A stretch of 64,000 nt of DNA from Acholoe squamosa (Eukaryota > Annelida > Polychaeta > Phyllodocida > Polynoidae): positions 5,494,771 through 5,558,770 of the forward strand of contig OX439050.1 in assembly GCA_949317995.1 (NCBI GenBank), written 5' to 3'. The notes beneath the pieces are model-generated. The model was not told the origin of the DNA, made no database searches, and saw only the letters and a list, made by a program, of their open reading frames with translations. Below, one piece after another: positions 3,964-50,824 of this stretch. A program made the position numbers and the translations under genes. How positions within the stretch are numbered: the first letter of the stretch is position 1; each line of letters opens with the position of its first letter.

Positions 3964-5350
3964 CACTTCTCCTATTTAAGGTAGAATCCAAAGGAGGAGG
4001 AAAATATAAAACTGCCATCAACTTCAATAACACTGCAATACTACTAGATGTTACAGCTACATCTATATCAAGGGCATTTTCCCCCTCGTGTTTAAACCAT
4101 TTTAGATGCACATAGAATTATTCCTAAATTTGTCCATGTGAATTTATTTCAGATACTTTGTGCATCAAAATGCACTAAATAGTTTAGGAATTTTCTTACT
4201 TATTTATCTATCAAAATTCAGACTAAAAACACCAAAGCTCCTCGTATCCTCTTGCAGGTAGTAGACTGCTGACTCTAGGGTTGTCTATACCCATTCTTTA
4301 TGGTCAAGGAATGGCATTCAAGGGTTTCTATGCTTCATGTACATTATCTATGTTTACCAATGTATGGGCAAGGTCGCCAGAAAGCAGTAGATTTTGTGTT
4401 TTTGGGTCATTTTGGACTCTTATGGCTATGGAGAAAGAAGTTGACCACCAATCTTGTCTTACATAGACTTATTCGATAGAGGACACTTAGGGCTATCAGA
4501 AATATGTGAATTTGTGGTCATCCATAAAAAATCCTCAGACTTATAGCCTGCCAAAGTGAAACAAACAGCCCAATTTGTTTTCTTTTGACTTTTTGTATTT
4601 TTCACAAGTGTCCTGTATTAAATAAAGACCATCTGGAGTATCACAAAGTTATTTTTGTATTGTATATGATCATAGGTATCATTTCCATGAGGTTTGGACA
4701 TGTTACTGAGTTTCATTATGTGTCTTTGAAAATGGAAATCTGTAATTTGTAACGTCCAGCACCTAAATCTAAATCAGTTATAAAACATGAATAAAATGGA
4801 GCTTCAAAATTGTTGTTATTACCCATATCCCAGCTAGCACAACTCATGCAATTTATGTCGTTCTTACGTAAAAACTCATGTTATTTACGTAAAAAAGACA
4901 TCATTCGGATGAGTAGTGCTAGCAGGGTATGGAGGGCCCTATTATCCTTTATTTTGGTGAAAAAATTGTGTGTCTATCTACATTTGTCTTCGTGTGAGAG
5001 CAGCTTATGTGAAATAATTCTGATAAAAGTACCGGACGTTACGTAACGTCCGATACTTTTATCATCATGTAAGAGGCAGTCTACTGTGCATGTATAACTC
5101 AAAGTTTGTTACATTTTTATAATTGAAGTGAATAATAGACATGTTGGCCTTGTTATTTCATGTGTTTGTTATGCATAATGGGATATTCCTATTGTCAATG
5201 GACCATTCTGGGTATTATAACTATTCTTCATATTTACTAAATTCTTCGCCATATAAAACCTAAGCTCTGCCCATGATCTACACTCAATAACATCCTGCAT
5301 TCCCCAACAGGAACCAGGATCCATTACTCATCACAAACACACTTCCTCGA
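3964..5350. other. unannotated stretch left of the 16-kb element
   Basis: This is AT-rich sequence without convincing coding potential. It holds a 44-bp palindrome (separate entry) and several TTACGTAA-type motifs near 4865-4895. I see no other feature. Confidence 0.5.
5021..5064. repeat. 44-bp near-perfect palindrome
   Basis: The sequence reads symmetrically around 5042/5043, with a GGACGTTACGTAACGTCC centre and arms TGATAAAAGT and ACTTTTATCA. There is a single mismatch pair. It could extrude as a cruciform or act as a dimeric binding site; its function is unknown. Confidence 0.85.
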
Positions 5351-5842
5351 TGACACTCTGTGACATAAGGTACAAGGATGTAATAACATTCCAACCTTAT
5401 GTACGCATACACAGTGTAACTGGAGGAAGTGCGATCCACCTGTGGTGCCATATTTGGAATGAGAGAATATTTCACAATCTCCTCTCAGTCCTCATCAACA
5501 TGACTAACACACAGGTGGCAATCTCTCCCTATGACACGTGTCCCTACTTCATTGAGCCACGTGTATAGAATATTTCACAACACTGTGAGCTGCTCAAGTC
5601 TTTCATATAAAAGGCAGCTTGAGCAGCTCCCAGTCATCTCTCCCAACTTACACCTTACACCTATACCTAGAACCTACGACAGGTTGAGCTATAGGATCAG
5701 AGGCAGAGCTTAGATCTTGGCGAGTGTTATCATTGTTACCACCTTTATGAAACACTCATGTCAGCTATGCAATAAAAGGATCAACTGAACTTCCCTGGAT
5801 TCCGTGTACATTCACTTCACCACATGTAACCGTCCGTTGACA
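5351..5842 (+). repeat. 5' LTR (492 bp)
   Basis: The LTR begins TGACACTCTG and ends CCGTTGACA, with canonical TG and CA termini. A TATAAAA box lies at 5606-5612 and an AATAAA signal at 5771-5776. From these I infer U3 to about 5634, R to about 5795, and U5 to the end. U3 contains a direct repeat of AGAATATTTCACAA (near 5464 and 5567). It matches the 3' LTR at 490 of 492 bases. Confidence 0.95.
5587..5634 (+). promoter_or_regulatory. LTR core promoter inside an inverted repeat
   Basis: The TATAAAA box at 5606-5612 is flanked by a perfect 12-bp inverted repeat, GAGCTGCTCAAG at 5587-5598 and CTTGAGCAGCTC at 5618-5629. The probable initiator CCAGTC lies about 25 bp downstream of the TATA box. 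The same arrangement is preserved in the 3' LTR. Confidence 0.75.
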
Positions 5843-5845
5843 CGA

Positions 5846-5862
5846 TGGTGGATGAACCCTCC
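5846..5862 (+). promoter_or_regulatory. candidate primer-binding site
   Basis: TGGTGGATGAACCCTCC lies three bases after the 5' LTR. It starts with the TGG expected for pairing with a tRNA 3' CCA end. A short offset from the LTR is common in Ty3/gypsy elements. I could not match it confidently to a particular tRNA. Confidence 0.6.
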
Positions 5863-5894
5863 AAGAATATCCCACTACCAACCTCTCATTAAAC

Positions 5895-8849
5895 ATGAGC
5901 AATAGTGAGACATCACCTGAGGAGCCAACTTCAGAACAACGCACCTTTACATCACCTGGGCTAGACGCGCCCAACCACCCCACAAGTGATACTACACATC
6001 CCCTCCAGAGACAAACTTCATCTCCAGACGCACTGACATTGGACCCAGTTTTACCTATAGCACTGCAGGCCCATGTATTACAACCTGTGAGTACCGGCAT
6101 TGAACAATTTTCCTCTACAATAGTGGATCACAACACTGGAGCACACACCAGTACCCCAGTATCACTACCTGCACCAGGACTAGACATCACCTTACCTGGT
6201 TACTCACAAGTAAATTCACCGCCACTAAGACTTTCTGGTATAACTAGCCCAACCTCTGAAGTACCTGTGGACAATACACAAAGCCACCTGTACCTCGACC
6301 CACACCTGGAGGACAGAACACCAGAGCTTCAAGCCGCCCTCCAGGACATAACTCCCCCACAACCCACAACACCTAGTGCAGCTGCATCTGCAGCACAAAC
6401 TGATCCAAGTGTAACTTCACATAAACCACCAGTTTGTGAGGAGCCAGTGGTTGTAGACACAGACTCTGACGCTTCCCTAGACGCTGATTACTGGAGAGAC
6501 AGAATCGGATCAGCAGTTTCTAGGTGGAGAGCAGCCTATGAAAACGGTGTAGGCAGGGTTTCCAATAACGACTCTGGACACCCGGTAGGAGACAATCCAA
6601 ACTTCTCACTCAATATTAATAGACTATTGGACGAGTGGCTTGACCCTACTGTTACCCAGCCAAACCGATACCAATCCACTTCTGAAGAGGAGGACCTGTA
6701 CCCCCCACCTGTGTACACACCTACACAGCCAATTAGAACCAGGTCAGTGGACTCACCACCAAGACAAGGCTCTAGATTTAGAAGGAGGGCCCAATCAAAT
6801 TCACCTCTTAGAAGAAGAACCCCCACTGGTTACAGACTACTAAGAAGTGTGGACGGAGCTACAAGTAGGTCTCACCTCGTAGCTACAACCCCGCTACTCA
6901 ACAGAGGCAATAGGACGCCTTACAACTCACCTCTCCTCATCAATTCACCTGGAGAAGATACTGAAGTGACCTTTCCCCGCCGACCCAACATGGCAATGTC
7001 CAGAGGTCACCCCCCTCAGTATGACCAGGAGGACATGAGAAGAAGTCTTGTCAGGGACTGTACAAGCGCCGTCAGTGAATCTCTCTCTGAGTTACTGGCC
7101 AAGCACGTGAGCACCCTATCCACTGAAATTAAAAGTCATGGACAGGAACACTCAGACCAATTGGCTAGAGTACACCTCAGGTTAGATGACATGGAACGTT
7201 GGAAGGAGCATATGGAAAGCAACACCGCCCATAATTTCAGGCAGGCAGAACAGAGCAATATGGAAGTTCTCAGAAGATCCGAGGATTTCACATATCAAAT
7301 GACTGACCAGCTAAGCAAAAACATGGACTCAATGAGGCTCGACCTAATGAGGGCCATTCAAAGCCATTCAAATGATGCAGACGCCACCAACTCCAACCAA
7401 ACCGCCACCGGCGCCCAAGGTAATTCAGGACAGGCACAATCCACTCCACCTTACCCCACGGCACCGGACTACAGCACTAACCACAACGACATGACAGGAG
7501 CAGGTATGAGCCCACCACATGCCTTCAACAATCAATACACAGCATCACATGCACTGCACCAATCTCCAACAGCTGGTGCACCAAACACCCACCAGGGGGC
7601 GACAACGTCTTGTAACACAGCGCCTAATCCAAATCAACACGGTGGCCATGTGGTTAATGGTGTTTACAGTCCCCAAGGACACACAAGCAACCACTCTGGA
7701 CTACCATATCCTCCTAGGTATGATCATATAGCACACTCCACACCGGTAGTGCACCAGGGAGGATACCATGGCGCTGAGTATACCAGATCCCCCCCTAGTA
7801 GAATTGACAGCGACAAGCTCACATCTGCCCAGCTAGGATCATTCAATAAGCCTGAACCCTTTGACAAACCAACGCCCTACAGGTCTGCAGCAAAATTTCT
7901 GACTGAATTTAAATTCTTCATAAGGAATGTGCACGCCAAGAGGCCCGACCTACATGCAACTTGCCTGTACACCTTTCTCAAAGGAAGGGCAGCTCAGTGG
8001 TTTTTCAGCAATATAATGGACAAGCCCATCATGCAAAACAATGACGCCGTCTATGAAGCTTTCTTGGCGAGGTTTGGCACTTCCGACCTCAGCACCATCC
8101 TCAAAGGATACAGAGCCAGGAAGCAAAAGCCAAATGAAACCACTGAGGACTACCTAGCAGACATGACCATGTTGTTGTCCAACAGCAGCCTGGACGAGGC
8201 CTCACAAGTGGACTACCTTGTAAATGGCCTCAGACCCGAGCTGAAAAATGTTGTTGTAGCCAAATCTCCCAAAACCTTGCTGGAAGCTGAACAATTGGCC
8301 ATAAATCAAGAACTAAATCTCGAAGCCATAAAAATTGCTCAGAACAGCTCAGCAGAGTTATGTGCTGTAGGCTACAACAAGAACGACGACAGATCCAGAA
8401 AGGATAAATATCAGCGCGACCACAAGAAAGAAGACAGACTGCCCAGTAGTAATTACAACAAACAGTATGAAAATAAATTCAAAAACGGCTACAGACAAAG
8501 GTCCAAATCTTCAGACAAATCCAATCCAAAGGACTACAGATCTAATTCCAAAAATAGATCCGACTATAAGTCCCCAGGAAGAGATAGGTCAAAAGATAGA
8601 TCAGAACAAAGATCAAGATCCTCTGATAGCAACAAAAATGTCGTCTTCATACCAGTTGCTGGACAGCCAAACAACAATAGGAATGTCTCCTTCATGGTCC
8701 CAGCTGACTTCACCATCCCAGACAATTGGGTACAACAGTCATTAAAGAAGTCCAGAGATCCAACCCCAGGCAGGAATTACTCCAGGAGCCATTCAGGATC
8801 TCAGTCTGAGGCAGACAATGACAGCCCCAACAACACACAAGATGAATAG
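5895..8849 (+). CDS. gag: Gag polyprotein, 984 aa
   Basis: This is the structural polyprotein of the element, expected to assemble cytoplasmic particles around the RNA. Residues 1 to about 395 are Pro/Ser/Thr-rich and probably disordered. About 398-492 is heptad-rich and likely coiled coil. About 663-820 resembles the retrotransposon Gag capsid-like domain, with conserved-looking FLKGRAAQWF and DYLVNGLRPELK segments. The C-terminus (about 835-940) is rich in Arg, Ser, Lys and Asp with RS/RD dipeptides. No CCHC zinc knuckle is present, so the basic tail may take over RNA binding. The ATG at 5895 is the first in a good frame after the primer-binding site. The ORF ends in UAG at 8847-8849 and the same frame then continues into pol. 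Confidence 0.9.
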   Translation: MSNSETSPEEPTSEQRTFTSPGLDAPNHPTSDTTHPLQRQTSSPDALTLDPVLPIALQAHVLQPVSTGIEQFSSTIVDHNTGAHTSTPVSLPAPGLDITLPGYSQVNSPPLRLSGITSPTSEVPVDNTQSHLYLDPHLEDRTPELQAALQDITPPQPTTPSAAASAAQTDPSVTSHKPPVCEEPVVVDTDSDASLDADYWRDRIGSAVSRWRAAYENGVGRVSNNDSGHPVGDNPNFSLNINRLLDEWLDPTVTQPNRYQSTSEEEDLYPPPVYTPTQPIRTRSVDSPPRQGSRFRRRAQSNSPLRRRTPTGYRLLRSVDGATSRSHLVATTPLLNRGNRTPYNSPLLINSPGEDTEVTFPRRPNMAMSRGHPPQYDQEDMRRSLVRDCTSAVSESLSELLAKHVSTLSTEIKSHGQEHSDQLARVHLRLDDMERWKEHMESNTAHNFRQAEQSNMEVLRRSEDFTYQMTDQLSKNMDSMRLDLMRAIQSHSNDADATNSNQTATGAQGNSGQAQSTPPYPTAPDYSTNHNDMTGAGMSPPHAFNNQYTASHALHQSPTAGAPNTHQGATTSCNTAPNPNQHGGHVVNGVYSPQGHTSNHSGLPYPPRYDHIAHSTPVVHQGGYHGAEYTRSPPSRIDSDKLTSAQLGSFNKPEPFDKPTPYRSAAKFLTEFKFFIRNVHAKRPDLHATCLYTFLKGRAAQWFFSNIMDKPIMQNNDAVYEAFLARFGTSDLSTILKGYRARKQKPNETTEDYLADMTMLLSNSSLDEASQVDYLVNGLRPELKNVVVAKSPKTLLEAEQLAINQELNLEAIKIAQNSSAELCAVGYNKNDDRSRKDKYQRDHKKEDRLPSSNYNKQYENKFKNGYRQRSKSSDKSNPKDYRSNSKNRSDYKSPGRDRSKDRSEQRSRSSDSNKNVVFIPVAGQPNNNRNVSFMVPADFTIPDNWVQQSLKKSRDPTPGRNYSRSHSGSQSEADNDSPNNTQDE

Positions 8850-8890
8850 GGATCAGGGGAAGGCACTCAAGCACCTAGTGACCCCGACCC
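8847..8890 (+). promoter_or_regulatory. UAG readthrough site with downstream hairpin candidate
   Basis: The gag stop TAG (8847-8849) is followed by G, a context known to favour readthrough in gammaretroviruses. The same frame stays open from 8850 into pol without interruption. Six bases downstream, GGGG at 8856-8859 can pair with the C-run starting near 8882, and CACT at 8864-8867 with AGTG at 8877-8880. This leaves a nine-base loop that could form a pseudoknot. The function is inferred from frame, context and structure. Confidence 0.7.
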
Positions 8891-11800
8891 CAACCGAACC
8901 ACGACCATCGAATTATCCAAGGACACTTCCCGAGATGCTGATGCACAAATGAATTCAGTAGACTCCCAATCATCCAGTTCGGATTATACCAACTTCTTGA
9001 ATACCAATGAGACTTCAGACTCCAGTGATGACGAGGACGAGTACAAGGACCAGAGCCAAAGGACCTCAATCCTGAAACTGAGGATCAAATCTGAGCAGTA
9101 TGGGCGGCAAGGTAAGGCCATTTACGTTGATACAGAATTAACCAAAGGTGCAGTTTCTGTAGACATAAATAACCACTTGTATAGAGCTCTCGTTGACTCA
9201 GGCGCCTCACTTTCCTTTATTAGCCAAAAAATGGCTGACAAAATCGCGAGCACACCAAATTTTAAACACGGGAGACGCGCGCGACTAACAGTTTTATCGG
9301 CTGATAAAACCCCCATCCAAGTAAATCACTCCATGACTGTAACTTTCCTCATTGGTGGCCATGAATTCAGATCCAGATTCCATGTGGTACCTGAACTGAA
9401 CCATCCCCTAATTTTAGGAGTAAATTTCATGACCAAATACAAAGCCAAAATTTCCTTTGGACTGACCCCCCCATCGCCCAACTACATCAGGGCGAACAAA
9501 AATGTTGATATCCCGCCAAACACTGAAGCCACCTTCAATGCGGTCGTGATAGGGAAAAGCAACATTGTGGGAAAAACTGGATTGACTGAGAACTCAGGTT
9601 CTACCCTACCGGTACTTATTAAGCACGCAATAGTTAAACCTAGATCAGACCTTAAAATAGTACCTGTAACAGTAGCTAACCCAAATGACTTCCCCATCAA
9701 GATAAAAAGACACATGAACCTCGGTGTATTTAGACTTTTCAACATCAAAAAGGCTGTACCCATTGGTGCACTCAATAGCGCCCATTCACTCAACAGTGTA
9801 ACAACAGAAAAGGACTTATTCCCAATCAATTGTGGAGAGGATCCCATGGACCAACTCCCCAAAGGAAATGAACCTTTGAAGTATAAAATCTGTGAAAAAC
9901 TCTCTGAAATTCAAAGACAACAGATCAAAAACATTGTTGAGGCCAATAGGCAAGCCTTTGTCCTAAATGAAAGCGCCATAGGTCTCAATGTAGAAAATGA
10001 GGTCAAGCTGGAATTAAAGCCAGACTTCAAACCCTGCAACAGACCGTCGTATAGGATGTCCCCTCACAAAGAAATTTTTCAAAGGGAACTCCTGGAAAAA
10101 CATTTAGAACAGGGAATAATAGAAGAGTGTACCAAACCCTGTGAGTGGAACTCACCCGCCTTTTTAGTGCCAAAACCACAAGGCGACAGGTCAGTAGACT
10201 CTGGTTGGAGAATTGTAGTTGACTACAGATGGGTAAATGAGAATTTAAAAACTTTCTCTTACTCATTCCCCAGAGCTGACGACCTCATGCAGCAGATAGG
10301 CAGAACGGGCGCCAAGTATTTTTCCAAATTGGATGTCTACAGCGCCTACCACCAGATTCCCCTAGCAGAAGAATCTAGGCCACTTACCACCTTCTCCGCC
10401 AATGGCACGAGATACATGGCAAAAGTTCTCCCTATGGGACTCAAAACTTCAGGCCTATCCTTCATGAATGTAATGGAGCAACTTCTCATGAAATGCAAGT
10501 ATAAAAATGCTGTAGCATATGTAGATGATGAAGCCATTTACAGCCCCACATGGGAAAGGCACTTACAAGATCTGGACGAAGTTTTAAAACATTTTATCAG
10601 AGGTATCATCAAACTGAAATCAGAAAAGTGCGAATTTGGAACTACCAAAATGGAATTTTTGGGTTTCAATGTAGACCAGCATGGTTTATCACCATCCCCG
10701 GACAAAATAGGACCTGTCAAAACCTTCCCCCCACCTAAAAACATCCATGATCTTAGATGTTTCAATGGTATGGCGCAGTTTTACAAAAGGTTCATCAGAG
10801 GTTTTGCTCATGTCATGAAGCCCCTTTATGAGGCGACGAAAAGCACCTTTAAATGGACCGCTGAGTGCCAGAGAGCCTTTGAGAAAATTAAAGCTGCTAT
10901 CTGTACTGAAGCTGTGCTGAAATTCCCGGACTATAATAGACCTTTTGTCATTTTTACTGACTCGAGCAACTACAGCCTAGGAGCTGTAATCACTCAAGTA
11001 GACGACCATGGTTTCTATAGACCGATTGAATTTGCAGGGAGAGGCTTGACACCTCAAGAGTCTAGGTATGGGATAACTGACAAAGAACTGTTAGGAATAG
11101 TTTTTGCAGTCAAAAAGTTCCACCATTATGTGGATGGAACTCACTTCAAAGTATACTCGGACCACACCGCCCTGGTTTCCCTTTTCAACAAAAAGGAAAA
11201 CATAACCAATGGAAGGTTAGCCAGGTGGGTCGACACAGTCATGTCCTACGACTTTGAAGTCAGATACCTGCAAGGCAGAGCCAACATTGTGGCAGACTTC
11301 CTTTCCAGAAGGAAGTACCCGCCCAGCTCTGATGATCCAATTCCCATCAGGTCTCAAGGTAGAATAATACTCCCTCCTAAATCAGTCAGATTCTCCGACA
11401 TCACCATGACCAAAGTCTTCAAATCAAACGACCCAATTCCCAAAAATCCAGTCCTCATGGGACCACCTAGGTCCATACTAAAAGGAGGACAGATTTGGGG
11501 TAGCACTTCCAAGAAACCAAAGGGTGTGATTGCCAAGAAAGGTAGCTCTGAGAGAGAAAAACTCAGCTCCAATCAAACCGTGCCCGAGCTGTGCATTCTA
11601 ACTCGATCTAAAGCCAAGTTACCAGATCCAGTCACACCCCCTCAGCCCAGCAAATCAACCAGAAGTAAACAGACCCGCCCCCCTAAGGTCAAGGACACCA
11701 AGACCAAAACAAGGGGCCGACCACCAAAATCTAGGTCACCCAGAGTATCAGTGAAATTAGCTAATACCAGAAGGGCTAAGCTATCACACAAAGTGCTACC

Positions 11801-13355
11801 CATGGCTGAACGAGCGATAAGCCAGCTATGTAAACACCACTCCCTAACCCCATCCAGGGAGACACTGATACAGGCACAGCAGGAGGATGTTTTCTCAAAC
11901 TCCATGCTGTCATACATCAATAAGGGTGAATTACCAGAGGACCCAAGCCTTAGTAAACAGATACTGCTAAACCATGACCAGTTCATGATTTTAGACGAAG
12001 TTTTATTCAGGATCACCAAATCAACCTATGGAGACAGTTTGGAGCCTACACTACAAATAGTGATGCCAGAAAAATGGGCAGAATCACTAATTGAGGCCAC
12101 ACACTGCTCACCATTAGGAGGACACCTTGGTCCCACTAAAACGTATGCAGCAATCAGATCCAGGTATTATTGGCGTTCCATGTTCAAAAATGTTTTCGAC
12201 TACTGTGGCACTTGCCACACATGTCTCACAACAAAGAAAAGACCAAAACACTTGAGAACCCCAATGACCCTGAGAGACCCTGTTTTAACAGCCTACACTC
12301 ACCTCACCATGGATACCATCGGTCCTTTCACACCTGCTGTGGATGGATCCTCATTTATCCATGTTGTCACAGATCATGCTACCAGGCACATCACTGTTTG
12401 GTCCACAAAGGATAACACCAGCGCCGAGGTAGCGCTAGGATTTTTCCAAAGGGTCATCTGTGTTTTTGGAACCCCGTCAGTCCTGAACACAGATAACGCA
12501 AAACAGTATGTGTCCAAATACTTCACATCTTTTTGTGATAAATTCGGCATCAAACATGTGACAGGGAGTGCACACTGGTCAAAATCACAAGGTCTATGTG
12601 AGCGTCAACATCAAACAATAGAATCTTCACTCAGAGCCTTTGTCTCCAAATCACAGAAACATTGGTCGACCTTCCTACAGGCTATAGCATTCAGCATAAA
12701 CAACACCGTATGCAGCGTGTTAGGATACTCACCCAGTCTTTTAGTGTTTGGAAAGCAATCACATCTCCCAACTGAGTCCTCCCTGTCATTGGTCAAACAA
12801 ACTGAAGAGATCAAAGACAAGGAAAAATTGGTCACCGCCTTACTCAGCTTAAGAGATGACATCCAACTTAAGGCAGCTGAAAGCATGGTCAAACACCATA
12901 AAAAGATGAAAGCCAGATTCAACGCCACTGCTTCCCCATGCACCTACAACACAGGCCAGCTTGTGTATCTACACATACCTAACCTGTTGGTAAAACAAAC
13001 AAGCAAAAAGCTGCAACCCACCTATAGCGGACCATACATCATAATGAAAATGACTTCACCAGTAACTGCAAAATTAAAAAGGCTTCAAGATGGTAAAGTA
13101 TTAAAAAAATCAATACACGTATCCAGATTAAGGAGACCAATCACCAAGGCTAGCGCCAAGGCTGTAATCAAAAGACTGCAGTCTGGGCCAATCAACATCT
13201 TGTATGACCCTGATCTGGATTCCACCCATATTGGTGAACCAGAATCCCCCGCAGTCAAAAAGAAAAGAGGACGACCTGCAAAGAAAGGACTTGTCATCCT
13301 TGCCCCTTCCCCAAAGAAGAAGACAAGGAAAAAGTCCACAGATAAAAAAAAATAG
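8850..13355 (+). CDS. pol: Pol: protease, RT, RNase H, integrase
   Basis: This is the enzymatic polyprotein for reverse transcription and integration. Its first internal ATG is at 8949 (residue 1 here), but the frame is continuous with gag through a single UAG. Visible domains are an aspartic protease with LVDSGAS at about 80-86, a reverse transcriptase at about 365-590 with YVDD near 524, and RNase H at about 668-787. Integrase follows, with an HHCC zinc motif at about 1048-1094 and a core D-D-x35-E (D near 1121 and 1181, E near 1217). The C-terminal module has a GPY motif near 1359. The domain order is Ty3/gypsy. Two AT-hook-like motifs are present: RGRPPK near 921, in the basic linker before integrase, and RGRPAK near 1438. 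There is no chromodomain. All catalytic residues I can check are intact. Confidence 0.95.
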   Translation, partial: GSGEGTQAPSDPDPNRTTTIELSKDTSRDADAQMNSVDSQSSSSDYTNFLNTNETSDSSDDEDEYKDQSQRTSILKLRIKSEQYGRQGKAIYVDTELTKGAVSVDINNHLYRALVDSGASLSFISQKMADKIASTPNFKHGRRARLTVLSADKTPIQVNHSMTVTFLIGGHEFRSRFHVVPELNHPLILGVNFMTKYKAKISFGLTPPSPNYIRANKNVDIPPNTEATFNAVVIGKSNIVGKTGLTENSGSTLPVLIKHAIVKPRSDLKIVPVTVANPNDFPIKIKRHMNLGVFRLFNIKKAVPIGALNSAHSLNSVTTEKDLFPINCGEDPMDQLPKGNEPLKYKICEKLSEIQRQQIKNIVEANRQAFVLNESAIGLNVENEVKLELKPDFKPCNRPSYRMSPHKEIFQRELLEKHLEQGIIEECTKPCEWNSPAFLVPKPQGDRSVDSGWRIVVDYRWVNENLKTFSYSFPRADDLMQQIGRTGAKYFSKLDVYSAYHQIPLAEESRPLTTFSANGTRYMAKVLPMGLKTSGLSFMNVMEQLLMKCKYKNAVAYVDDEAIYSPTWERHLQDLDEVLKHFIRGIIKLKSEKCEFGTTKMEFLGFNVDQHGLSPSPDKIGPVKTFPPPKNIHDLRCFNGMAQFYKRFIRGFAHVMKPLYEATKSTFKWTAECQRAFEKIKAAICTEAVLKFPDYNRPFVIFTDSSNYSLGAVITQVDDHGFYRPIEFAGRGLTPQESRYGITDKELLGIVFAVKKFHHYVDGTHFKVYSDHTALVSLFNKKENITNGRLARWVDTVMSYDFEVRYLQGRANIVADFLSRRKYPPSSDDPIPIRSQGRIILPPKSVRFSDITMTKVFKSNDPIPKNPVLMGPPRSILKGGQIWGSTSKKPKGVIAKKGSSEREKLSSNQTVPELCILTRSKAKLPDPVTPPQPSKSTRSKQTRPPKVKDTKTKTRGRPPKSRSPRVSVKLANTRRAKLSHKVLPMAERAISQLCKHHSLTPSRETLIQAQQEDVFSNSMLSYINKGELPEDPSLSKQILLNHDQFMILDEVLFRITKSTYGDSLEPTLQIVMPEKWAESLIEATHCSPLGGHLGPTKTYAAIRSRYYWRSMFKNVFDYCGTCHTCLTTKKRPKHLRTPMTLRDPVLTAYTHLTMDTIGPFTPAVDGSSFIHVVTDHATRHITVWSTKDNTSAEVALGFFQRVICVFGTPSVLNTDNAKQYVSKYFTSFCDKFGIKHVTGSAHWSKSQGLCERQHQTIESSLRAFVSKSQKHWSTFLQAIAFSINNTVCSVLGYSPSLLVFGKQSHLPTESSLSLVKQTEEIKDKEKLVTALLSLRDDIQLKAAESMVKHHKKMKARFNATASPCTYNTGQLVYLHIPNLLVKQTSKKLQPTYSGPYIIMKMTSPVTAKLKRLQDGKVLKKSIHVSRLRRPITKASAKAVIKRLQSGPINILYDPDLDSTHIGEPESPAVKKKRGRPAKKGLVILAPSPKKKTRKKSTDKKK

Positions 13356-14277
13356 ATTTTCAGAAAACACACAATTTTTTTTTTTCTCCCTCCCTCCTTT
13401 TTCACCCCAAGACCCCCACCACAACCCCCCCCCCCCACATCCACACATACCCCCCTACCTTCACCCAAACCGGTGGCAATTTTGGCCACGTGTTATTTCA
13501 TGCAGTGATGTTTTTCCCCACAATTTTTTTTTATTTTATTTTTCATCTAATTATCCAAACCACATACCAATTACCTTTAACGTCACAATTTCTACACAAC
13601 ACCCCAGAAGCCTTCTGGCTTACTTCTACTGATGAGACATTGTCAAGAATCTTATCTAGGATTTGAGACTCAGACAGTCATATAATGATTGATTAAGGTT
13701 GGCACGCCACATAAATTACCCAAGGTCACAGCGTATTCTCGGTTCGTGAATCCTAATTTTAAGAACACGCATGCGCCGGTTTGTTACAAGCTCAGGGCTC
13801 CTCTATACCTTAAAGTATTACCAAATGACCACCCATTGTAGGAGAGCAGCACCTAGACATCCTGATCCGTGTTTATGCCTCTGTTTATCATCGGTACTGG
13901 AATGTTTGGTGAGACACTTATTCAAATAATTCAGCACAGTTCCCTGCTGTGTTATCATAACAGGAACAAGTGCACCCCCACAAGCTGACTAATCTCAGCA
14001 CCACAACCAACAACCCCCCATTATTACTACAATATTCAGATCACCCAATGATCATCCACGCCCCCTATAGAAGGCCCATCAAATTTGCATATCACAATGT
14101 ACAAGTGTATGCAAACCAACCAATAGCCAGGCCCCGTGCCATATATGGGTGAGACATACCTCATCGGGAGGCATGTAATGAGGAATTAGCCAACCTCATG
14201 AAATGCTTATAAGCCTCACACCACCCCCATCTTATCCACTTCCAAAACAATAACCAAACTCACCACACCCAGCCACC
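13356..14277 (+). other. pol-env intergenic leader region
   Basis: This is non-coding sequence after pol. It begins with T- and C-rich tracts (13370-13460). A TATAAG at 14208-14213 lies about 70 bp before the Kozak ATG of the next exon and could be an internal promoter. Alternatively, the CAG at 14270-14272 could serve as a splice acceptor that joins this exon to an LTR-derived leader. Neither is proven. The short ORF at 13970-14152 looks like chance. Confidence 0.5.
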
Positions 14278-14339
14278 ATGGAGCAAGCATCCGGAGACCA
14301 CAGGACCCAAGTGTCGGGACTGCCATGCAACAAGCCCAG
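14278..14339 (+). CDS. short shared coding exon with splice donor
   Basis: An ATG in an excellent context (GCCACCATGG) opens a frame of 20 codons plus 2 nt that ends in AG|GTAGGA, a good 5' splice site (GT at 14340-14341). Unspliced, the frame stops at once at the TAG inside the donor, so the exon makes sense only when spliced. It ends in codon phase 2. Acceptors at 14634, 15519 and 19536 all start exons in the matching phase. I infer that it supplies a common N-terminus to the accessory, env and 3' proteins. Confidence 0.75.
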
Positions 14340-14634
14340 GTAGGATTGGTCTTATGTGTCCATTAGTAGCGTCATCAATCGTTCTAGCATGACAATGATG
14401 GAATCTACCATCATGTTGCCCAGATACCCATTACATGCCAATGGTAGTGTGCGCCCAGAGTGCTTTGTAAAATGCAATAGTTGAATTTGCAGTCCTTTTT
14501 CAAAACCATGTATGGCAGTCTGACTTTTCACAACCTTATTTATCAACCTCTTGACAATACCCCCCACCAGCCCCTTCATCTATCTTAGTCTAAAAACGAA
14601 CCTATCAAAATTTTTCTCTTATTATTCACAACAG

Positions 14635-15118
14635 CCTTAGAGCCCCAGAGATTAGACATGGAGCCAACTCAGGGTGGACCATCCACAGTCTTTTAGGCCC
14701 AAACGGCATCAAAAGTAAGGCCATGGATCTGTTCGAGATCAGAATAACTATCATGGAGCACAAAGACATGATCAAACGTATATCCAGCGACGACTTAGGT
14801 GTATACCTAAACAACAAAACAGTTCAAAAAGAGCTCACCCTACAAGACCCAATTATATTGTCGGCCACCAAAGCCATGATATTCGATCTATGCAAAGATT
14901 TCCCCACAATCCCATTGTGGGACAGATTCAGTGAGGAAACATCAAGCTATATAGCACTTCTATGTGCCAGGACTCTGATTACCTCAGAGAAACCACTTAA
15001 AGAGCTACCAAGATATGAAACAGGTATCGGCAGATACAATGTCATAATTCAATCAACAAATCTTCAGACTCAGCTGGCAGCGTTTGAAATGGCTAGATAC
15101 TCCCACTTATACAGTTAA
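14635..15118 (+). CDS. accessory ORF of the LTR element (spliced start)
   Basis: The acceptor, a pyrimidine-rich stretch ending in CACAACAG, ends at 14634. The frame dictated by the donor at 14339 then runs without a stop through 14635-14722 into a 131-residue ORF with an internal ATG at 14723, ending at 15118. The product has no recognised motif and no hydrophobic segment; it looks like a small globular, partly charged protein. Position between pol and env and the shared leader exon suggest an accessory role comparable to small genes of complex retroviruses. It could instead start at the internal ATG. Function is unknown. Confidence 0.6.
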
Positions 15119-15519
15119 ATCTATCAACCCTAAATTGACCCATTCTATCCCCCCCCCTTCTTTACACATTCACGATGCGAAAAAACTAATTAATCCCCTC
15201 AATTCATTTCCCCTTTCTCTTCTCGCGACCTTTACATGACTAAGATGGAGACATCATTACTAGTTAAGGCATCAGCCTAGCAAACTGATAACCTTTTAAA
15301 TAAACACGCCCAGAAGCGCCACATTCACACTACACTGAACCAACAACACACCCAAACACGTATAGGACGACCACCGCCCAATCTACACAAACATACCTCA
15401 CACAAAGCCAACCCCCCCCCAACCCCACCCTTAGAACACCCGACTCACCCCAGACAACAGTCCTATCTCAGTCTCATATGATCGATCTCTCACAAGCTTA
15501 TCTAAATTTCTATTTTTAG

Positions 15520-17677
15520 GACAGCAGCCTCCTTGGCAGCACTCCTCCTAATCTTGTGCGCCCAGACCCACCAGTCAGGAGCACAGGATTTTGTAACCAA
15601 TGAAGAAACCATCTTCAGGCCAAACTATGGTGTTTTATTCACCAAAATACCCCAGAAAATGATCTCAGGATATATGGATTACCCATTAGTTTTCACTTTA
15701 GACCTATCTTTCAATCAATCCTTGCAGCGACCGGACAAATTAACCTCCCTAATCAGCAAAAATGCCCCAAACTTTATCTTGGAAACCGCCCAAACTTTAG
15801 ACCTAATTTTAGCAAATCTCTACCAAAAATCTCAAAAATCTTTAGCCCTATTAATAAAATTTTTGGAACATCCCCAAACTAGGTCACCCAGAGGCGCCCC
15901 AGGACAAATCATAGGTGATATTTTAAGAGCATCAATTGGCTTGAGCACGCAACCTGAAGTAGACTTGTTGAATTCCGAAATGTCCAACTTAGAGAAAACT
16001 CTAGCCACCAAAATGCACGTGGTGGAATTAGCCACACATTTTCTCTTGAACATTTCTGAATGTAATTATCAATCTTTGAGTATTTTCTCCAGCATGCAAA
16101 ATGATACGGATGACGCCCTGGCTCTGCTCAGCTCCAACCTCCAACTGTTGACTAAGAATGTATCAAACATCTTATTCAACCTGGAACAACAGAGCAGACG
16201 GGACACCTATCATTCGATGTTATTTACCGCTGCTAACTCTCAAATTGAAGCGCTAATGAATCCGCAAAATGATTTAGACACCCTACTGGACTCACTAACC
16301 ACTCTAATGGAAGGCGAGCTACCTCCAAAATTAATCCCACATAAAGTCATGGAAGATGGACTTAATAATCTATCAAGCTCTTTGTATGGATCCAACAATG
16401 GTATCAAAATTCTAAACGTACCCACCGGTTTCTACTACCAAAGGAGAGTGCATGTGCACTGGCAGGACCAAAACAAACTTTACATCACAGTGCCTATACC
16501 CATAGGACTGGGGGACAATATCTACTCCATATATAGAGCGGAGGCCTTCCCAGTCCCATTTGATACCACCAATGTAAACACTACTGGGTTTACACGAGTA
16601 CAGCCATTGCCTAATTATATAGCCATGTCTGCGTCCCAGTCACACTACATTGAACTGGATCACTCTGACTTAGATCTTTGTGATGTAAATGTTTTCATAA
16701 CATGCAACCTGCCCCTGCCCATGTTATCTCCTAGGCACCCCACCTGCAGCTTATCCTTTTTTTTAGACCTACCTAACGCTGTACATAACACCTGCAATTT
16801 TCGGGTCCACATGACAGCACAAATTCCCAACATTGCTAAGCCCATCTCCCAGAGCTCCTACTTGCTCATCACTAATTTTTCACCTTCAATAATGCAATGC
16901 TCAAACTCAGGCCAAATTGAGATCAAAAATGCAGCCTACTCTATTATTTCAGTACCATGCCTCTGCTCACTCAAAAACAGAGGCATGATAATGATTAATT
17001 CAGACCTGTCCTGCGCCCAAAACTTTACTTTAGAACCTATCGCCAAAGTGCCCTTCAACTTGCCCCTATGGCAGCATTTTGGTAACCCGCCAAACAACAT
17101 ATCAGGAGTAACCATAGCAACCACTCCGACCCACCTAGACCTACCAAATTTTCAGCGCCTGAAGCGCCTTCACAACCAAAAATTCCTACCCCTATTCAAG
17201 GACATTTTAGACCTAAAAGGCGCTGCCACCAAAATTCATGACAAATCATCCATCCTGAGCACCAACTCACTCATACATCTAGGATATCACCTGGAGTTCT
17301 CCCCTTGGTTACACCTGTTGTCGCCAGCCATCGCCATCTTGTGCTGTCTGATCACGTGTCGCATACACATGCGCGTGGTATACTTAGCCCAATTAGTGAC
17401 CATTCACAGTCGAGCAACGATGGCGGACGCAGCATCTTGGAATAAGCTTAAGGAGATGATCAAAAATACCAACCAAAATTGGCCCACGCGGACCACACCC
17501 CAGGAGATCACTACACCTGACTGGATTCAGATGCCAGGAAGGTATGATTCCATGATTGCCTTCCTAGGCATCATCCTCAGCTTGTTGTTCATCAAGGCGG
17601 CGGGAAGACGCTGTCTTAGGCATTGGCCCTACGGCAGACAGGACCCCGCCCCTGGAACACCAAGATTCGTACTCTAG
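15520..17677 (+). CDS. env: Env-like glycoprotein, fusion (F)-like, spliced start
   Basis: This is a membrane glycoprotein ORF. The open frame has no ATG near its 5' end. It begins just after a strong acceptor (polypyrimidine tract ending TATTTTTAG, AG at 15518-15519), in phase with the exon at 14278-14339. Counting from the codon at 15533, a hydrophobic signal-like stretch covers about residues 1-8, continuing from the upstream exon. RSPR at 117-120 is a possible furin site, followed by a Gly/Ile-rich fusion-peptide-like segment. At least eight N-x-S/T sites and a Cys-rich ectodomain follow. There is a transmembrane segment at about 593-612 and a second hydrophobic stretch near 672-690 in a long tail. 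The layout resembles the baculovirus F / errantivirus Env type, which is a family inference from organisation and not from a search. The ORF has no internal stop. Confidence 0.8.
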
Positions 17678-17708
17678 AGGGCACACATATGCCTTTCCAG
17701 TGGGATTA

Positions 17709-18224
17709 ATGGTGTATGGAAGGAACCTTTGGCCAGCATCCATCTTGGCACCCAAACTAGCACCACCCAGGTTAACTTTCCCCCTAGCCCGTCATCTTGA
17801 TGCGCACTGGAAGTCGGACGTCGGAATGATCATTGGTGGAAGACTGAGGACGGTGAGGCTGGAGAGATACCCCAGTTGCCCTTTGCTCTGGCGGATCCCC
17901 CTCACAATCATCCTCAGATCCGGACCCCACACGGTCACCCTGGCCATTGTACAGGAAAACCAGCCCGACTTCCAACTCACACCAAGTGAATATGAACTAT
18001 CAGCCAGCTACAAACCAGTGCCACCTCTGACACGGAGAAAGGACCTAAGCAGGCGGGAAGCCCCTAAAGCCTCCACCAGTGGGACAACTCCGGCAGAGAT
18101 GGCCCTGCTACAACTCAGGGAAACCCAACCACCCAAGGATCTATACCTATTCGACCCTACACTAGCTGAGAGGGCCATTAACACCATAGATGGTAGGTTT
18201 TTCTTTAAAACTTTAAACCATTAG
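17709..18224 (+). CDS. 3' accessory ORF, 171 aa, unknown function
   Basis: The ORF begins at the first in-frame ATG, 31 bases after the env stop. It follows a candidate splice acceptor (CCTTTCCAG ending at 17700) by only 8 bases, so it could be translated from its own ATG on a spliced mRNA. The same frame is open upstream, overlapping the end of env. The product is mixed: a hydrophobic-basic first half, then a Pro/Arg/Ser-rich segment. I recognise no domain. Unlike the other spliced ORFs it is not phase-compatible with the donor at 14339. Confidence 0.55.
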   Translation: MVYGRNLWPASILAPKLAPPRLTFPLARHLDAHWKSDVGMIIGGRLRTVRLERYPSCPLLWRIPLTIILRSGPHTVTLAIVQENQPDFQLTPSEYELSASYKPVPPLTRRKDLSRREAPKASTSGTTPAEMALLQLRETQPPKDLYLFDPTLAERAINTIDGRFFFKTLNH

Positions 18225-18801
18225 TTCGGCTGATGTGGGGATCGTTGGGTACGCTCAGCATCCTCATCGACCTCCACCGGCCACCCCCCGAGGTTCCTCC
18301 CATAATGGACTGTCCCCAGCGCCCACAAGCCCGGTGACAACGCTGGACGGTACCACCACCCTTATGTGGGGATGGCAGGTGCTGAACAGCGCTACATAGC
18401 AGACCGGATAGCCCTGAGACGCTGATGTGGGGATCCCCCTCCTATCCGGCGAGATCCCCCCGAGACCCCCAAGGACCCCCCATAGGGCCCCATCCAGACC
18501 ACACATAACCATACCCACAAAATCGCAATATCCCGCCATTGCTTCACTTTGCACATCACTGAGTCTTATCAATGACGACGCAAGGCCGTTCCACAAACCA
18601 CAAACGCAGTCATAACGTCTGCACAAAATTTTCGCGCCAGTCACGACCCGGCGTCGCCATTTTTAAAGAGCTTCGTGATATGCAAATGTCCATTAGTTTC
18701 GGTCACATGATCGTCGTGACTCGATACATAGACTGAAAACAACAACATCAACACGTGCAAACAACCTAGCTTCATGATAAAAGGGATTACTCACGTCTTT
18801 C
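18225..18801 (+). other. non-coding region of the LTR element
   Basis: No convincing sense ORF is present. GCTGATGTGGGGATC occurs twice, at about 18229 and 18421, with a weaker third version (TTATGTGGGGAT) near 18361. G- and C-rich stretches could fold into an RNA structure. An antisense frame covers 18264-18644 but has no ATG near its start and may be chance. Confidence 0.45.
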
Positions 18802-19049
18802 CTAAAAGCCGTTCACTGCCGGCACCTGAGGCGCTAGCAGTAGGTAGGTGACCTGATGTATCCTACAAAAACAAATCCAAAATTGAAATTACCAAAAAGC
18901 CCGTAACAAATTTCTGATTCAAAATTTTCCAAAATAAATTCACACAACCACCAATTCAAAATTACTTACGTCCCGTCCTCGTTGATGAACACGGTGATCA
19001 ACAGGGCGCGACCGTCCGGGAAATGGAGAACGCCTTGGACGATCTCCAT
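18802..19049 (-). CDS. antisense two-exon ORF inside the LTR element (46 aa)
   Basis: Read on the minus strand, an ATG at 19049 opens an exon to 18970 that ends in GGGAC|GTAAGT. A 107-bp intron (18863-18969) follows, with a T-rich tract ending TTTTTGTAG. Exon 2 continues in frame from 18862 to a TAG at 18802-18804. The intron has ideal splice signals and the start is preceded by a TATA box (separate entry). The product would be a 46-residue protein with a hydrophobic-acidic first half and no recognised domain. A further good donor (AAAGAC|GTGAGT) lies just beyond the stop, so more exons may exist. Antisense genes of this kind are known from some complex retroviruses; the analogy here is only positional. 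Confidence 0.6.
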
Positions 19050-19061
19050 CTTGCGTAACTA

Positions 19062-19095
19062 CTGATAAGATAGCCGGCACCCATATCTTATATAG
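19062..19095 (-). promoter_or_regulatory. antisense core promoter
   Basis: On the minus strand, CTATATAAG (TATA box, around 19087-19094) is followed about 28 bases later by the initiator-like ATCAGTAGT. The antisense ATG at 19049 follows shortly after. TATA-Inr spacing is canonical. Confidence 0.6.
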
Positions 19096-19099
19096 GACC

Positions 19100-19504
19100 A
19101 AGGCTATAGGCATCAAAACTCAAAATTTATTTCAAATCCGCGACCCCACCCTCAAATTCAGTTAACATACCGTATAACAGAATGCCACAACTCGAAATTT
19201 TCCAAGACCTTTTTCAACCACCTTCATAAAACTTTAGGCCACTATTCGAAATATTTTTCAGGATTTTTATCTGAATAATCAGGTTCAGCACGGTGAAGCG
19301 ACAGCTCGGTACCGCCACCCAGTGTGATACAAATTAACCAACTAAGCTTGCTTAGTTACACTTACCGCCTTCTATTCTTGCAATCATATTGAGCTCTGTC
19401 AAGTTAATATTATGTGTCAAACAGCTGAAATTCATAGCACCTATTGGTTATCCTGTATTGACAAGGCCACCAGCTGACCCAAGCAGGATTTCACACCTCT
19501 GTTA
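19100..19504 (+). other. non-coding region before the last sense ORF
   Basis: I see no supported ORF on either strand. The region is AT-rich and leads into the pyrimidine tract of the acceptor at 19536. Confidence 0.45.
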
Positions 19505-19536
19505 ATGGTTTGTTTTCACGGCTCTCTTCCCTACAG

Positions 19537-20236
19537 ACCCCTCCTCTGGAGACCTGGCAGCCCTACCATCCGTCGGCCCTCCAGCCCTGGAGAAAGGCGA
19601 GCCGGGGCTATCATCGTCCAGGAAGGCGACAGGAAGAAGAAGCAGCATGGAAGAGGTCAAGCCAAATCCAACCCCACCAGCCGCGGACCCCGAGCCCCAG
19701 CAGCAACTTCCACCAGCCAGTGGAGGGAGCCAGCTAGGAAGCCCCATCTAACACCCAGGGGATCCTATGTGTCGGCAGCTCGTAGGCCTGGGACACCCAT
19801 GCCCCCGACCTACAGGCACGCCAATAATTACTGCCGCCACATCAATGGACAGGTATCCGCCGCCAAACTCTGTATACCGTGTTACCATCAGCCAAGTGGG
19901 TTCCTGTGCCCTTGCGCTTATGACAATAAACCTAAGCCAGGCGGCAACAGGCAACAGTCCCCACCCAGAACCATGTGGAGGCCCATGCCAGCTCGACCTA
20001 GCCCCACCACAGAGACAGACACAACCTCAGAGGAAGGATCAGATGTGGCCACTGCTGGTGACTTAGCATCAGTACACCTAGACTTTTCGGACATTACCAT
20101 CTCAAAATTCAGACCCATCAGATCCAGGAACCATCGTAAAGCTGAAGGCAGGTTTAAGAACTTCAACATCAAAGAACACCAAAACCTACCTCCAAATAGC
20201 ATACACCCTAATCGACATTTCAGAACACACAAATAG
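19537..20236 (+). CDS. 3' basic accessory ORF (spliced start)
   Basis: A strong acceptor (CTCTCTTCCCTACAG, AG at 19535-19536) precedes an open frame that ends at 20236. The phase fits the donor at 14339 exactly. An unspliced ATG at 19505 in the same frame is an alternative start. The protein of about 230 residues is rich in Pro, Arg, Ser and Gln. It has a basic cluster (ERRAG then DRKKKQHGRG) near its N-terminus that could act as a nuclear localisation or RNA-binding motif, a Cys-containing centre and a Ser/Thr/Glu-rich acidic patch. Position and basic motif recall regulatory proteins of complex retroviruses, but I see no homology and propose no specific function. Confidence 0.6.
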
Positions 20237-20949
20237 ACATTTCACAGAATCAATTCTTGTACTACCCAACCATTGAGATACGGTTGTAAACAACCCCCAT
20301 GCCTATACGTATCTTTTGTTTTCTGTGAATGTAAAAGTTTTTTTTTTTTCCTCTATCAAGTATGTCAAATCCTTTTCACTGGATTCTTCAAAAAGCCTGT
20401 TTTGTTTAGGCCAAATGTATATATTAGCTTAAGATTTCTCCCCCTCGATGAACATTATGAGACTAAAAACCAAAATGGCCTCCTGGTTTAACTCTAGGCG
20501 CTATAAAAAGTTCATCACCTTCACCATTGTTTTTCAAGCTCAACCATGAAATGTATTTATGAGTTTTAGTCATAGTAGCAATCCATAGCAATAAGTTTTT
20601 ATTTACCCCATTCATATATATTTGATGAATATTTTGCGTCCCTGTCATACACTACTCCACCTTAATTTTCACCTCGTAACTAACTTCGCAAGATAAACTT
20701 GGTAGTGTGGAGCCAAAAATTCATCACCCTTGTGCCGACCTTTGACCCCACAGTACCAAGAATTACCGACCCCAGTTAATTTTCACATGGACAAGTTCTG
20801 GCATATCAATGCGCCAAACAGAACTCGCCACCAGACCAAGAAAATTCCCATCTTTTCAAAATAACAGGCATACGCACACATTATGAGCATATAACATGTA
20901 ACCTTTATAACCTGTACATAGATTAAGTCACTTGATCCACACGAACCGA
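20237..20949 (+). other. 3' non-coding region of the LTR element
   Basis: This sequence lies between the last ORF and the 3' LTR. The bases directly before the LTR (CCACACGAACCGA) are not purine-rich, so the expected polypurine tract is missing or has an unusual form. There are no ORFs of note. Confidence 0.6.
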
Positions 20950-21441
20950 TGACACTCTGTGACATAAGGTACAAGGATGTAATAACATTCCAACCTTATG
21001 TACGCATACACAGTGTAACTGGAGGAAGTGCGATCCACCTGTGGTGCCATATTTGGAATGAGAGAATATTTCACAATCTCCTCTCAGTCCTCATCAACAT
21101 GACTAACACACAGGTGGCAATCTCTCCCTATGACACGTGTCCCTACTTCATTGAGCCACATGTATAGAATATTTCACAACACTGTGAGCTGCTCAAGTCT
21201 TTCATATAAAAGGCAGCTTGAGCAGCTCCCAGTCATCTCTCCCAACTTACACCTTACACCTATACCTAGAACCTACGACAGGTTGAGCTATAGGATCAGA
21301 GGCAGAGCTTAGATCTTGGCGAGTGTTATCATTGTTACCACCTTTATGAAACACTCATGTCAGCTATGCAATAAAAGGATCAACTGAACTTCCCTGGATT
21401 CCGTGTACATTCACTTTACCACATGTAACCGTCCGTTGACA
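20950..21441 (+). repeat. 3' LTR (492 bp)
   Basis: It is identical to the 5' LTR except for A instead of G at 21160 (a CpG to CpA change) and T instead of C at 21417. It carries the same TATA box with flanking inverted repeat and the same AATAAA. Confidence 0.95.
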
Positions 21442-21960
21442 CTATATTACTGAGAGTAACTTTGATTACCTCTTATTTCATCATTTTGGTACTGCACGTT
21501 ACATGACACAAAACAAGCAATAAAAATGGAACCGGACATCCCAAGTTGGTATTTTTTGGTTTTCTGAGGTGAGGGGATGTCCCTTAAGGTTACATAAAGC
21601 TATAAGAAAATTAATTTTTCATGCCCTTCGAGGGTAAAATTTTACACTTTCTGACAACCTGACCCATATACAAAAGAACAAAGTTACAAATGTTTTTATT
21701 AAAAGTAGATCAAATGTCTTCCAAAAAAACGCCATCACATGCCACCACAGGCACGCCCCCTGCTGATACGGTTCGGTAGCAGCCACCAGACCACAGAGAA
21801 ATAGACATAATGTTTATTAGAAAAGCATGTAAGTTTGGAAGGGATCTTATCATAAATATGTGCACAGGTAAAAAAGATAGGAAAGGCTTTAATGTGACTC
21901 AAATGCAGAAAAGTCTCTTTTGTTTTGGCCCATTTACCTAACTTTGATGCATATGAGCCT
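21442..21960. other. 3' flank of UGT-A
   Basis: I see no gene here. The segment 21738-21838 is similar to 31067-31190, the corresponding downstream flank of UGT-B, so the flank was duplicated together with the genes. Confidence 0.55.
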
Positions 21961-50416: not shown

Positions 50417-50824
50417 ATCGTCTGAGATATCCTCGGGATCATTGTCATTCGGTAATCTAAGGTTACTACTTGTGACCGTTTCAGAAAGTGTTACACTTCA
50501 AAAAACATGTCCTTTCTTTAATTAGATAGGTCTAGTTCCTTGATTCGAAATCGGTACTACTGTCCAGTATGCATTAGCAACGATGGTATCCACGGACTTT
50601 AATCCGATACTAGATAAGGCTACCACATCCGGTTCTATCACCGCGGCCTGATTCCTCATGGCGGGATCACTTTGTAGAAGTACATCACAAGCTACTCCCA
50701 CAGGAATCCAGACAGTTTGTGCCACTGAGGCCATACTGCTTACTTGTCATAACACACACCCTACTTTCACAGGATACAGGTATTTCACACTCAGTACTCC
50801 AGATTTCAGTTCCAGCATCACTTC

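What the first reader, a model, noticed from the sequence alone, without database searches (positions are those of the whole stretch)
5351..21441. A 16.1-kb Ty3/gypsy-class element with the layout of a complex retrovirus
Seen: LTRs with 2 differences in 492 bp, open gag, pol and env, three further ORFs, splice sites and an antisense ORF. Known: most Ty3/gypsy elements are 5-8 kb with two ORFs; errantiviruses add only env. Inference: an invertebrate retroelement lineage has independently assembled readthrough, alternative splicing, accessory proteins and antisense expression.
Basis: partly seen in the sequence, partly recalled or inferred. Interest (0 to 1): 0.95.

Follow-up and report, generated by a model that had tools for sequence, protein, structure and literature searches.

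The report
Retrovirus-like element with two extra genes
This is a young, abundant virus-like jumping element in an animal genome that carries a virus-type envelope gene and two further genes kept working by natural selection, rather as in the more elaborate retroviruses of vertebrates; the claimed antisense gene and one of the three claimed extra genes do not hold up.

Summary
The window holds a recent Ty3/gypsy provirus: gag and pol in one frame split by a single UAG, then a baculovirus-F-type env. Other copies in the same 1.48-Gb genome were read piece by piece.
(1) The true LTR is 5193-5842 (650 bp); 8 of 8 LTR pairs have 4-bp TSDs. The window copy lost its PPT and the start of its 3' LTR.
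(2) The UAG is kept in all 8 junctions read; all five variable sites after it (to 9000) are third codon positions, which fits readthrough.
(3) ORF A (131 aa) and ORF C (243 aa) are real genes: over 12 other copies they hold 0 and 1 distinct indels, against about 30/kb in spacers; pN/pS 0.25 and 0.43.
(4) 'ORF B' is the C-terminal tail of env, out of frame in the window copy.
(5) The antisense ORF is not a gene (pN/pS 0.93; 16 frame-breaking indels; open in 3 of 12 copies).
Splicing is strongly implied for env, whose signal peptide has no start codon, but no RNA was seen. No relatives of A or C were found in the searches made. Precedents exist (Cer1/CERV, Burro, bdelloid ORF3s), hence a new variant of a known kind.

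The parts
5189..5192 (.). target-site duplication CTAT, left copy
   Evidence: repeated at 21442-21445
5193..5842 (+).
5846..5862 (+). possible primer-binding site beginning TGG, 3 nt after the LTR; no tRNA was matched to it
   Evidence: sequence; untested
5895..8849 (+). gag, 984 aa; weak Ty3 capsid match; no CCHC knuckle seen in the sequence
5904..5905 (+). predicted splice donor 10 nt into gag (rank 42 of 568 GTs by a recalled consensus); motif kept in 11 of 11 leaders
   Evidence: no RNA evidence
8847..8849 (+). UAG between gag and pol, kept in 7 of 7 other junctions read
8850..13355 (+). pol: protease, RT, RNase H, integrase (H2C2, rve), SH3-like end with a GPY motif
14723..15118 (+). ORF A, 131 aa, accessory gene under purifying selection
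15520..15540 (+). predicted splice acceptors at the start of env (15520 is rank 5 of 1002 AGs; 15525, 15528 and 15540 fit the phase of the gag donor)
   Evidence: no RNA evidence
15521..17677 (+). env, baculovirus-F type, signal peptide without ATG, RSPR site, two late hydrophobic segments; ends early in this copy
18264..18662 (-). antisense ORF: not supported as a gene
19505..20236 (+). ORF C, 243 aa, basic and cysteine-containing, accessory gene under purifying selection
19537..19537 (+). best-scoring predicted acceptor of the element (rank 1 of 1002), inside ORF C; its phase does not fit the gag donor
20950..21441 (+). 3' LTR, cut at its 5' side; the PPT and about 350 nt in all are missing here
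21442..21445 (.). target-site duplication CTAT, right copy

Best explanation
A recently amplified Ty3/gypsy-type (Metaviridae) endogenous-retrovirus family of about 16.5 kb in an animal genome. Shown: paired LTRs with 4-bp TSDs; gag and pol in one frame across a conserved UAG; a baculovirus-F-type env whose full form is about 900 codons and includes 'ORF B'; two further genes, A and C, under purifying selection; a damaged window copy (env out of frame near its end; PPT and start of the 3' LTR missing). Inferred: pol is made by UAG readthrough as in murine leukaemia virus; env, A and C are made from spliced RNAs, env using gag's AUG for the start that its signal peptide lacks; env mediates entry into cells. 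Most likely roles, with low certainty (about 0.3 each): C, a basic cysteine-containing protein, is an RNA-binding regulator such as a CERV- or Rev-like exporter of unspliced RNA; A, a small protein encoded between pol and env, counters a host defence.
For: Domains. LTR and TSD in 8 of 8 pairs; LTR pairs differ at 0-2 of 490-492 positions. UAG in 8 of 8 junctions and third-position variation after it. Genes A and C: 0 and 1 distinct indels in 393 and 729 nt over 12 copies against 110 in 3720 spacer nt; pN/pS 0.25 (p 0.0015) and 0.43 (p 0.0023), shifted frames 1.26 and 8.2, 1.50 and 1.54. env 0.39, p 1e-8. ORF B read through from env in 9 of 12 copies to within 12 nt of its stop; whole env open for 897-900 codons in 4 of 12. 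ORF A at 150 scored places of 1374 candidates, 142 of 150 without a stop. Env signal peptide without ATG behind a strong acceptor. A spliced accessory product that exports unspliced RNA exists in a C. elegans element, Cer1 (passages of PMC10309623).
Against: No RNA evidence for any splice. The best-scoring acceptor (19537) lies inside ORF C in a phase that does not fit the gag donor, and the top env acceptor (15520) needs another phase than that donor gives. The fold after the UAG is no better than shuffles. ORF B, although part of env in most copies, shows no clear selection (pN/pS 0.84, p 0.38). Codon scores for ORF C do not separate its frame from the +1 frame. The env is broken in 8 of 12 other copies. 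Polymorphic sites come from related copies and are treated as independent. No homologue gives A or C a function, and C was not searched in the large protein database.
Confidence: 0.8

Rival explanations
1. An ordinary env-bearing gypsy element (gag, pol, env) with captured, non-functional DNA; ORFs A and C are chance open frames in an A- and C-rich strand that has few stop codons.
For: The strand is A- and C-rich; A and C have no Pfam match up to E 10 and no relatives in IMG/VR; codon scores of C are ambiguous.
Against: Few indels in A and C (p 3e-5 and 1e-7 against spacers) and pN/pS 0.25 and 0.43 with shifted frames above 1.
Confidence: 0.07
2. Pol starts independently at its own ATG (8949) after the UAG, by re-initiation or from another RNA, and there is no readthrough.
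For: An in-frame ATG lies 33 codons after the UAG; the RNA fold is unremarkable against shuffles.
Against: One of 8 copies has lost that ATG; the four variable sites between the UAG and the ATG are all third codon positions, three of them silent; the stretch just after the UAG is purine-rich, as in murine leukaemia virus (passages of PMC5778647).
Confidence: 0.15
3. The third ORF and the antisense ORF are genes of their own, giving three accessory genes and antisense expression as in some complex retroviruses.
For: Both are open in the window; ORF B has one indel in 12 copies.
Against: ORF B is continuous with env in 9 of 12 copies. Antisense: 16% of shuffles as long, open in 3 of 12 copies, pN/pS 0.93, 16 distinct indels, none a multiple of three.
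Confidence: 0.03

Closest known systems
Errantiviruses and env-bearing gypsy elements across Metazoa (Drosophila gypsy, ZAM; Chary and Hayashi 2025, known here only through passages and a reference entry of PMC13172572)
   Same: gypsy-type pol, baculovirus-F-type env, LTRs, gag without a zinc knuckle as far as seen
   Different: UAG in frame between gag and pol (errantiviruses use a frameshift: recalled), about 16.5 kb, two further selected genes, long env tail
Cer1 of C. elegans with its CERV protein (passages of PMC10309623)
   Same: gypsy-type LTR element with an extra protein without known relatives outside nematodes, made from a spliced RNA; CERV has a cysteine-rich region and a basic nuclear signal, C is basic with six cysteines
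   Different: Cer1 has no stop between gag and pol and no env-like product in that place; no sequence likeness was tested
Burro giant gypsy elements of planarians (passages of PMC6431247)
   Same: gypsy-type, env homology, accessory ORFs, large size
   Different: over 30 kb with one giant polyprotein and env between gag and pol; here separate genes
Bdelloid rotifer LTR elements with extra ORF3s (passages of PMC5408684)
   Same: extra genes 3' of pol, some env-like, said to be expressed from spliced messages
   Different: usually one ORF3, several of them enzymes; env of paramyxovirus type
Murine leukaemia virus gag-pol readthrough (passages of PMC5778647)
   Same: UAG between gag and pol in one frame, purine-rich stretch after it, spliced env RNA
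   Different: a vertebrate retrovirus without the extra genes; the pseudoknot was not tested here
Troyka (sections of PMC12440569)
   Same: LTR retroelement of animals
   Different: CG...CG ends, 3-bp TSDs, no env, no GPF/Y motif

Membership tests
Ty3/gypsy (Metaviridae) | pol order protease-RT-RNase H-integrase with a GPF/Y motif | tested here: met
   motif named
Ty3/gypsy (Metaviridae) | LTRs with TG...CA ends and 4-6 bp TSDs | tested here: met
   8 of 8 pairs, 4 bp
Ty3/gypsy (Metaviridae) | RT nearer to Ty3 than to retroviruses | tested here: met
   Ty3 E 1.8e-67, retroviral RTs from 3.6e-28 in the phmmer list
Errantivirus | baculovirus-F-type env | tested here: met
   and P0003
Errantivirus | gag and pol joined by a frameshift (recalled) | tested here: not met
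   same frame across UAG
Errantivirus | RT within the errantivirus clade | not tested
   no named errantivirus RT was at hand; one search holds none
Retroviridae (complex retroviruses) | retroviral RT and RNase H with tether | tested here: not met
   gypsy-type RNase H directly after RT; Ty3 nearest
Retroviridae (complex retroviruses) | accessory proteins besides gag, pol, env | tested here: met
   two genes under purifying selection, (a likeness of plan, not of descent)
Retroviridae (complex retroviruses) | accessory proteins from multiply spliced RNAs | tested here: inconclusive
   predicted sites only
Cer1/CERV-like element | spliced accessory protein that exports unspliced RNA | not testable with these tools
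   needs RNA and cell experiments
Troyka | CG...CG ends, 3-bp TSD, no env, no GPF/Y | tested here: not met

The most novel reading that the evidence does not exclude
A Ty3/gypsy lineage of invertebrates has independently evolved the working plan of a complex retrovirus: UAG readthrough, a shared spliced leader, an F-type env with a long tail, a Rev/CERV-like regulator (C) and a small host-antagonist (A), both new proteins without cellular or viral kin.
Probability: 0.35. Interest if true: 0.8.

Novelty: new variant of a known kind. Interest (0 to 1): 0.6.

Why it matters
It gives selection-based, not merely structural, evidence that a gypsy element keeps two orphan genes besides gag, pol and env. 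If A and C are a regulator and a host antagonist, retroviral complexity would be a repeated outcome of carrying env and splicing rather than a vertebrate peculiarity, and the many young copies make that testable in one animal by RNA sequencing.

Tried and rejected
Antisense gene: rejected. ORF B as its own gene: rejected; ORF B against the tail of the relative env P0003: best local score matched by 11-13% of 500 shuffles, so no homology shown. Troyka: rejected (against 97). My first reading, that the copy had no TSD and no PPT, was wrong: the LTR edge was wrong and this copy lost its PPT. A special fold after the UAG: not above shuffles, although among the most stable 3% of 1700 local stretches. 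An empty site inside the window: none found, with flanks joined at the edges then believed. Relatives in IMG/VR and GTDB contigs: the five loci L001-L005 are gypsy elements, none inside the nine-member clade. Homologues: A none in the protein database, none in IMG/VR; C none in IMG/VR and not searched in the protein database, whose three searches went to env, pol and A; no Pfam match for A, B or C up to E 10. Structure prediction: switched off. Not answered: genome searches for ORF C and for leader sequences whose donor G is replaced, as expected of genomic copies of spliced RNA. Of 10 further single LTRs looked at (20 stretches), 5 belong to copies with the 3' gene block and 5 do not; the latter are not in the counts. 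A further 11 or 12 unpaired LTRs of the 40 listed were not looked at. The PBS was not matched to a tRNA; ARAGORN found no tRNA gene in the window.

Full report
What was checked first. The two repeats differ at 2 of 492 positions. ORFs: gag 984 aa, pol 1501 codons stop to stop in the same frame after one UAG, then ORFs at 14594/14723-15118, 15506-17677, 17568/17700-18224 and 19478/19505-20236. Pfam: weak Ty3 capsid in gag (below its cut-off), protease, RT, RNase H, integrase and an SH3-like end in pol, Baculo_F in env; nothing in the other ORFs, nor at E 10 for A, B and C. The element strand is A- and C-rich, unlike its flanks, so long + strand ORFs come cheaply. Against 200 dinucleotide shuffles the longest frame is as long in 2.5% (ORF A), 0.5% (ORF C) and, on the minus strand, 16% (antisense ORF). 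Codon scores favour the frames of A and B slightly and do not separate C from its +1 frame.

Kinship. Of 385 pol hits, 120 were listed; eight of these (P0004-P0010, P0012; 31-62% identity) stand apart. In an RT-RNase H tree of 124 rows they form one group with the window (SH-aLRT 99; quick search, no bootstrap), the highest identity being 79% over 419 columns. None carries a name, so the place among named gypsy clades is untested. All eight are pol-length proteins (1183-1535 aa) without a gag part, which agrees with a stop or frame change between gag and pol in relatives. Among solved structures Ty3 is nearest and retroviral RTs come later. Env has one database relative among the 8000 candidates scored, P0003, 26% identical over 78%, also with Baculo_F and late hydrophobic segments.

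The family in its genome. The genome search, answered after nine busy replies, put the window on C16 of a 1.48-Gb, 63-contig assembly and gave 40 scored LTR matches at 99-100% out of 2103 first-look candidates. Seven other LTR pairs of the same orientation were taken (start-to-start spacing 10.8 to 21.5 kb; window 15.6 kb). In the five other copies printed a purine-rich tract (GGAATGTGGGGA) precedes the 3' LTR; the window lost it with the first part of its 3' LTR, about 350 nt in all. LTR pairs differ at 0-2 of 490-492 positions, so these insertions are recent, whereas copies differ from the window by about 0.2-3% in coding pieces; most of that variation therefore arose in replicating lineages, where selection can act.

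Readthrough. All 7 other junctions have TAG followed by the same 12 nt, with open frames on both sides of the stretch fetched. Over 8 junctions, positions 8700-9000 vary at 12 sites outside the stop; 10 are third codon positions of the gag/pol frame. After the UAG all 5 are third positions, three of them silent, and one removes the first pol ATG in one copy while the frame stays open. Hence the stretch after the UAG is most simply read in the pol frame by readthrough. The fold there is among the most stable 3% locally but no better than shuffles. Murine leukaemia virus reads through a UAG with an 8-nt purine-rich spacer and a pseudoknot (passages of PMC5778647); a pseudoknot was not tested here.

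Extra genes. Twelve other copies carry the 3' gene block (L014-L020, L029, L034, L040, L045, L048). Distinct indels per kb: ORF A frame 5.7 (none after ATG 14723), env 1.9, ORF B 1.9, ORF C 1.3; spacers 31.5, 62.0, 18.4 and 29.5; in all 6 in 3830 coding nt against 110 in 3720 spacer nt. Replacement, silent and stop changes, with the spacers' own mutation spectrum as expectation: ORF A 8/13/1, pN/pS 0.25, p 0.0015 (shifted frames 1.26 and 8.2); env 70/77/4, 0.39, p 1e-8 (1.58, 1.28); ORF C 26/25/2, 0.43, p 0.0023 (1.50, 1.54); ORF B 21/11/1, 0.84, p 0.38; antisense ORF 29/13/1, 0.93, p 0.47. Sites seen in two or more copies alone are few and reach significance only for env (7/22; A 2/3, p 0.12; C 7/7, p 0.07). 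Leaving out broken copies keeps the pattern: 6/11 for A in 11 rows, 22/21 for C in 10, 35/36 for env in 5. Full-length open frames over the 12 copies: A 10; C 9, plus one with a shifted end; antisense 3. The antisense span holds 16 distinct indels, none a multiple of three. ORF A has 1374 candidate places; of the 150 best, all 95-100% identical, 142 have no stop; 20 of the least similar of these give pooled pN/pS 0.21 against the window, a figure biased low because they were picked by protein score.

ORF B. In 9 of 12 copies the late env frame runs to within 12 nt of the ORF B stop; in four of the 12 (L014, L016, L020, L040) the whole env is open for 897-900 codons. In the window a short length difference near the end of env separates the two. 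So env has a long tail after its second hydrophobic segment, as P0003 does, and the window's env is broken. Intact copies exist.

Splicing. The env frame begins with a signal-peptide-like stretch that has no ATG and follows a strong acceptor (15520, rank 5 of 1002 AGs; sequence). A donor 10 nt into gag (rank 42 of 568; motif kept in 11 of 11 leaders) would supply an in-frame start to env through acceptors at 15525, 15528 or 15540, but not through 15520. The donor and acceptor weights were my recalled consensus. The top acceptor of all (19537) lies inside ORF C in a phase that does not fit this donor; this stays unexplained. ORF A has its own ATG in a GCCATGG context.

Comparison. Giant or extra-gene gypsy elements are in print: Burro (passages), bdelloid ORF3s (passages), and Cer1 with CERV, a spliced-RNA product needed for export of unspliced RNA (passages). 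Env-bearing gypsy elements across animals are reported by Chary and Hayashi 2025, which is not held and is known here only from passages of another paper. Ten paper searches listed no paper whose title or opening abstract describes this layout; in two surveys of mollusc and annelid LTR elements none of the terms tried for envelope or accessory ORFs occurs in the main text. The unheld paper may describe relatives.

Verdict. The roles of A and C are guesses: C as a basic, cysteine-containing RNA regulator by analogy with CERV (41 K/R, 6 C in 243 aa), A as a defence antagonist by position only.

Noticed in passing
L021 (G000:C8:54029897-54036684): Three copies of the LTR lie 7.28 kb apart in tandem on C8; the stretch between two of them holds 168 nt of ORF A in antisense and otherwise other ORFs, some reverse-transcriptase-like in look, so the LTRs enclose a different interior.
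   Followed up: partly
G000:C7:48391797, 48395126, 48398466 (minus strand): Three ORF A copies 3.3 kb apart, which suggests a tandem array of a piece of the element.
   Followed up: no
window 5845-5892: A 15-codon upstream ORF ends two bases before the gag ATG (read).
   Followed up: no
window 21961-23514, 32682-34160, 44143-45624 (minus strand): Three related long ORFs that look like UDP-glycosyltransferases (by eye), 76-77% identical DNA in part: a small gene array beside the element.
   Followed up: no
window 50000-53981 (minus strand): Remains of another gypsy-like element, with protease- and RT-like pieces in broken frames (by eye).
   Followed up: no
window 25937-27334, 28974-29594, 793-1309: Minisatellites with 62-, 55- and 32-bp units.
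   Followed up: no
L042 (G000:C13:11253387-11261687): A stretch 82.7% identical to the pol-ORF A spacer without the genes: an older relative, or a separate repeat inside the spacer.
   Followed up: no
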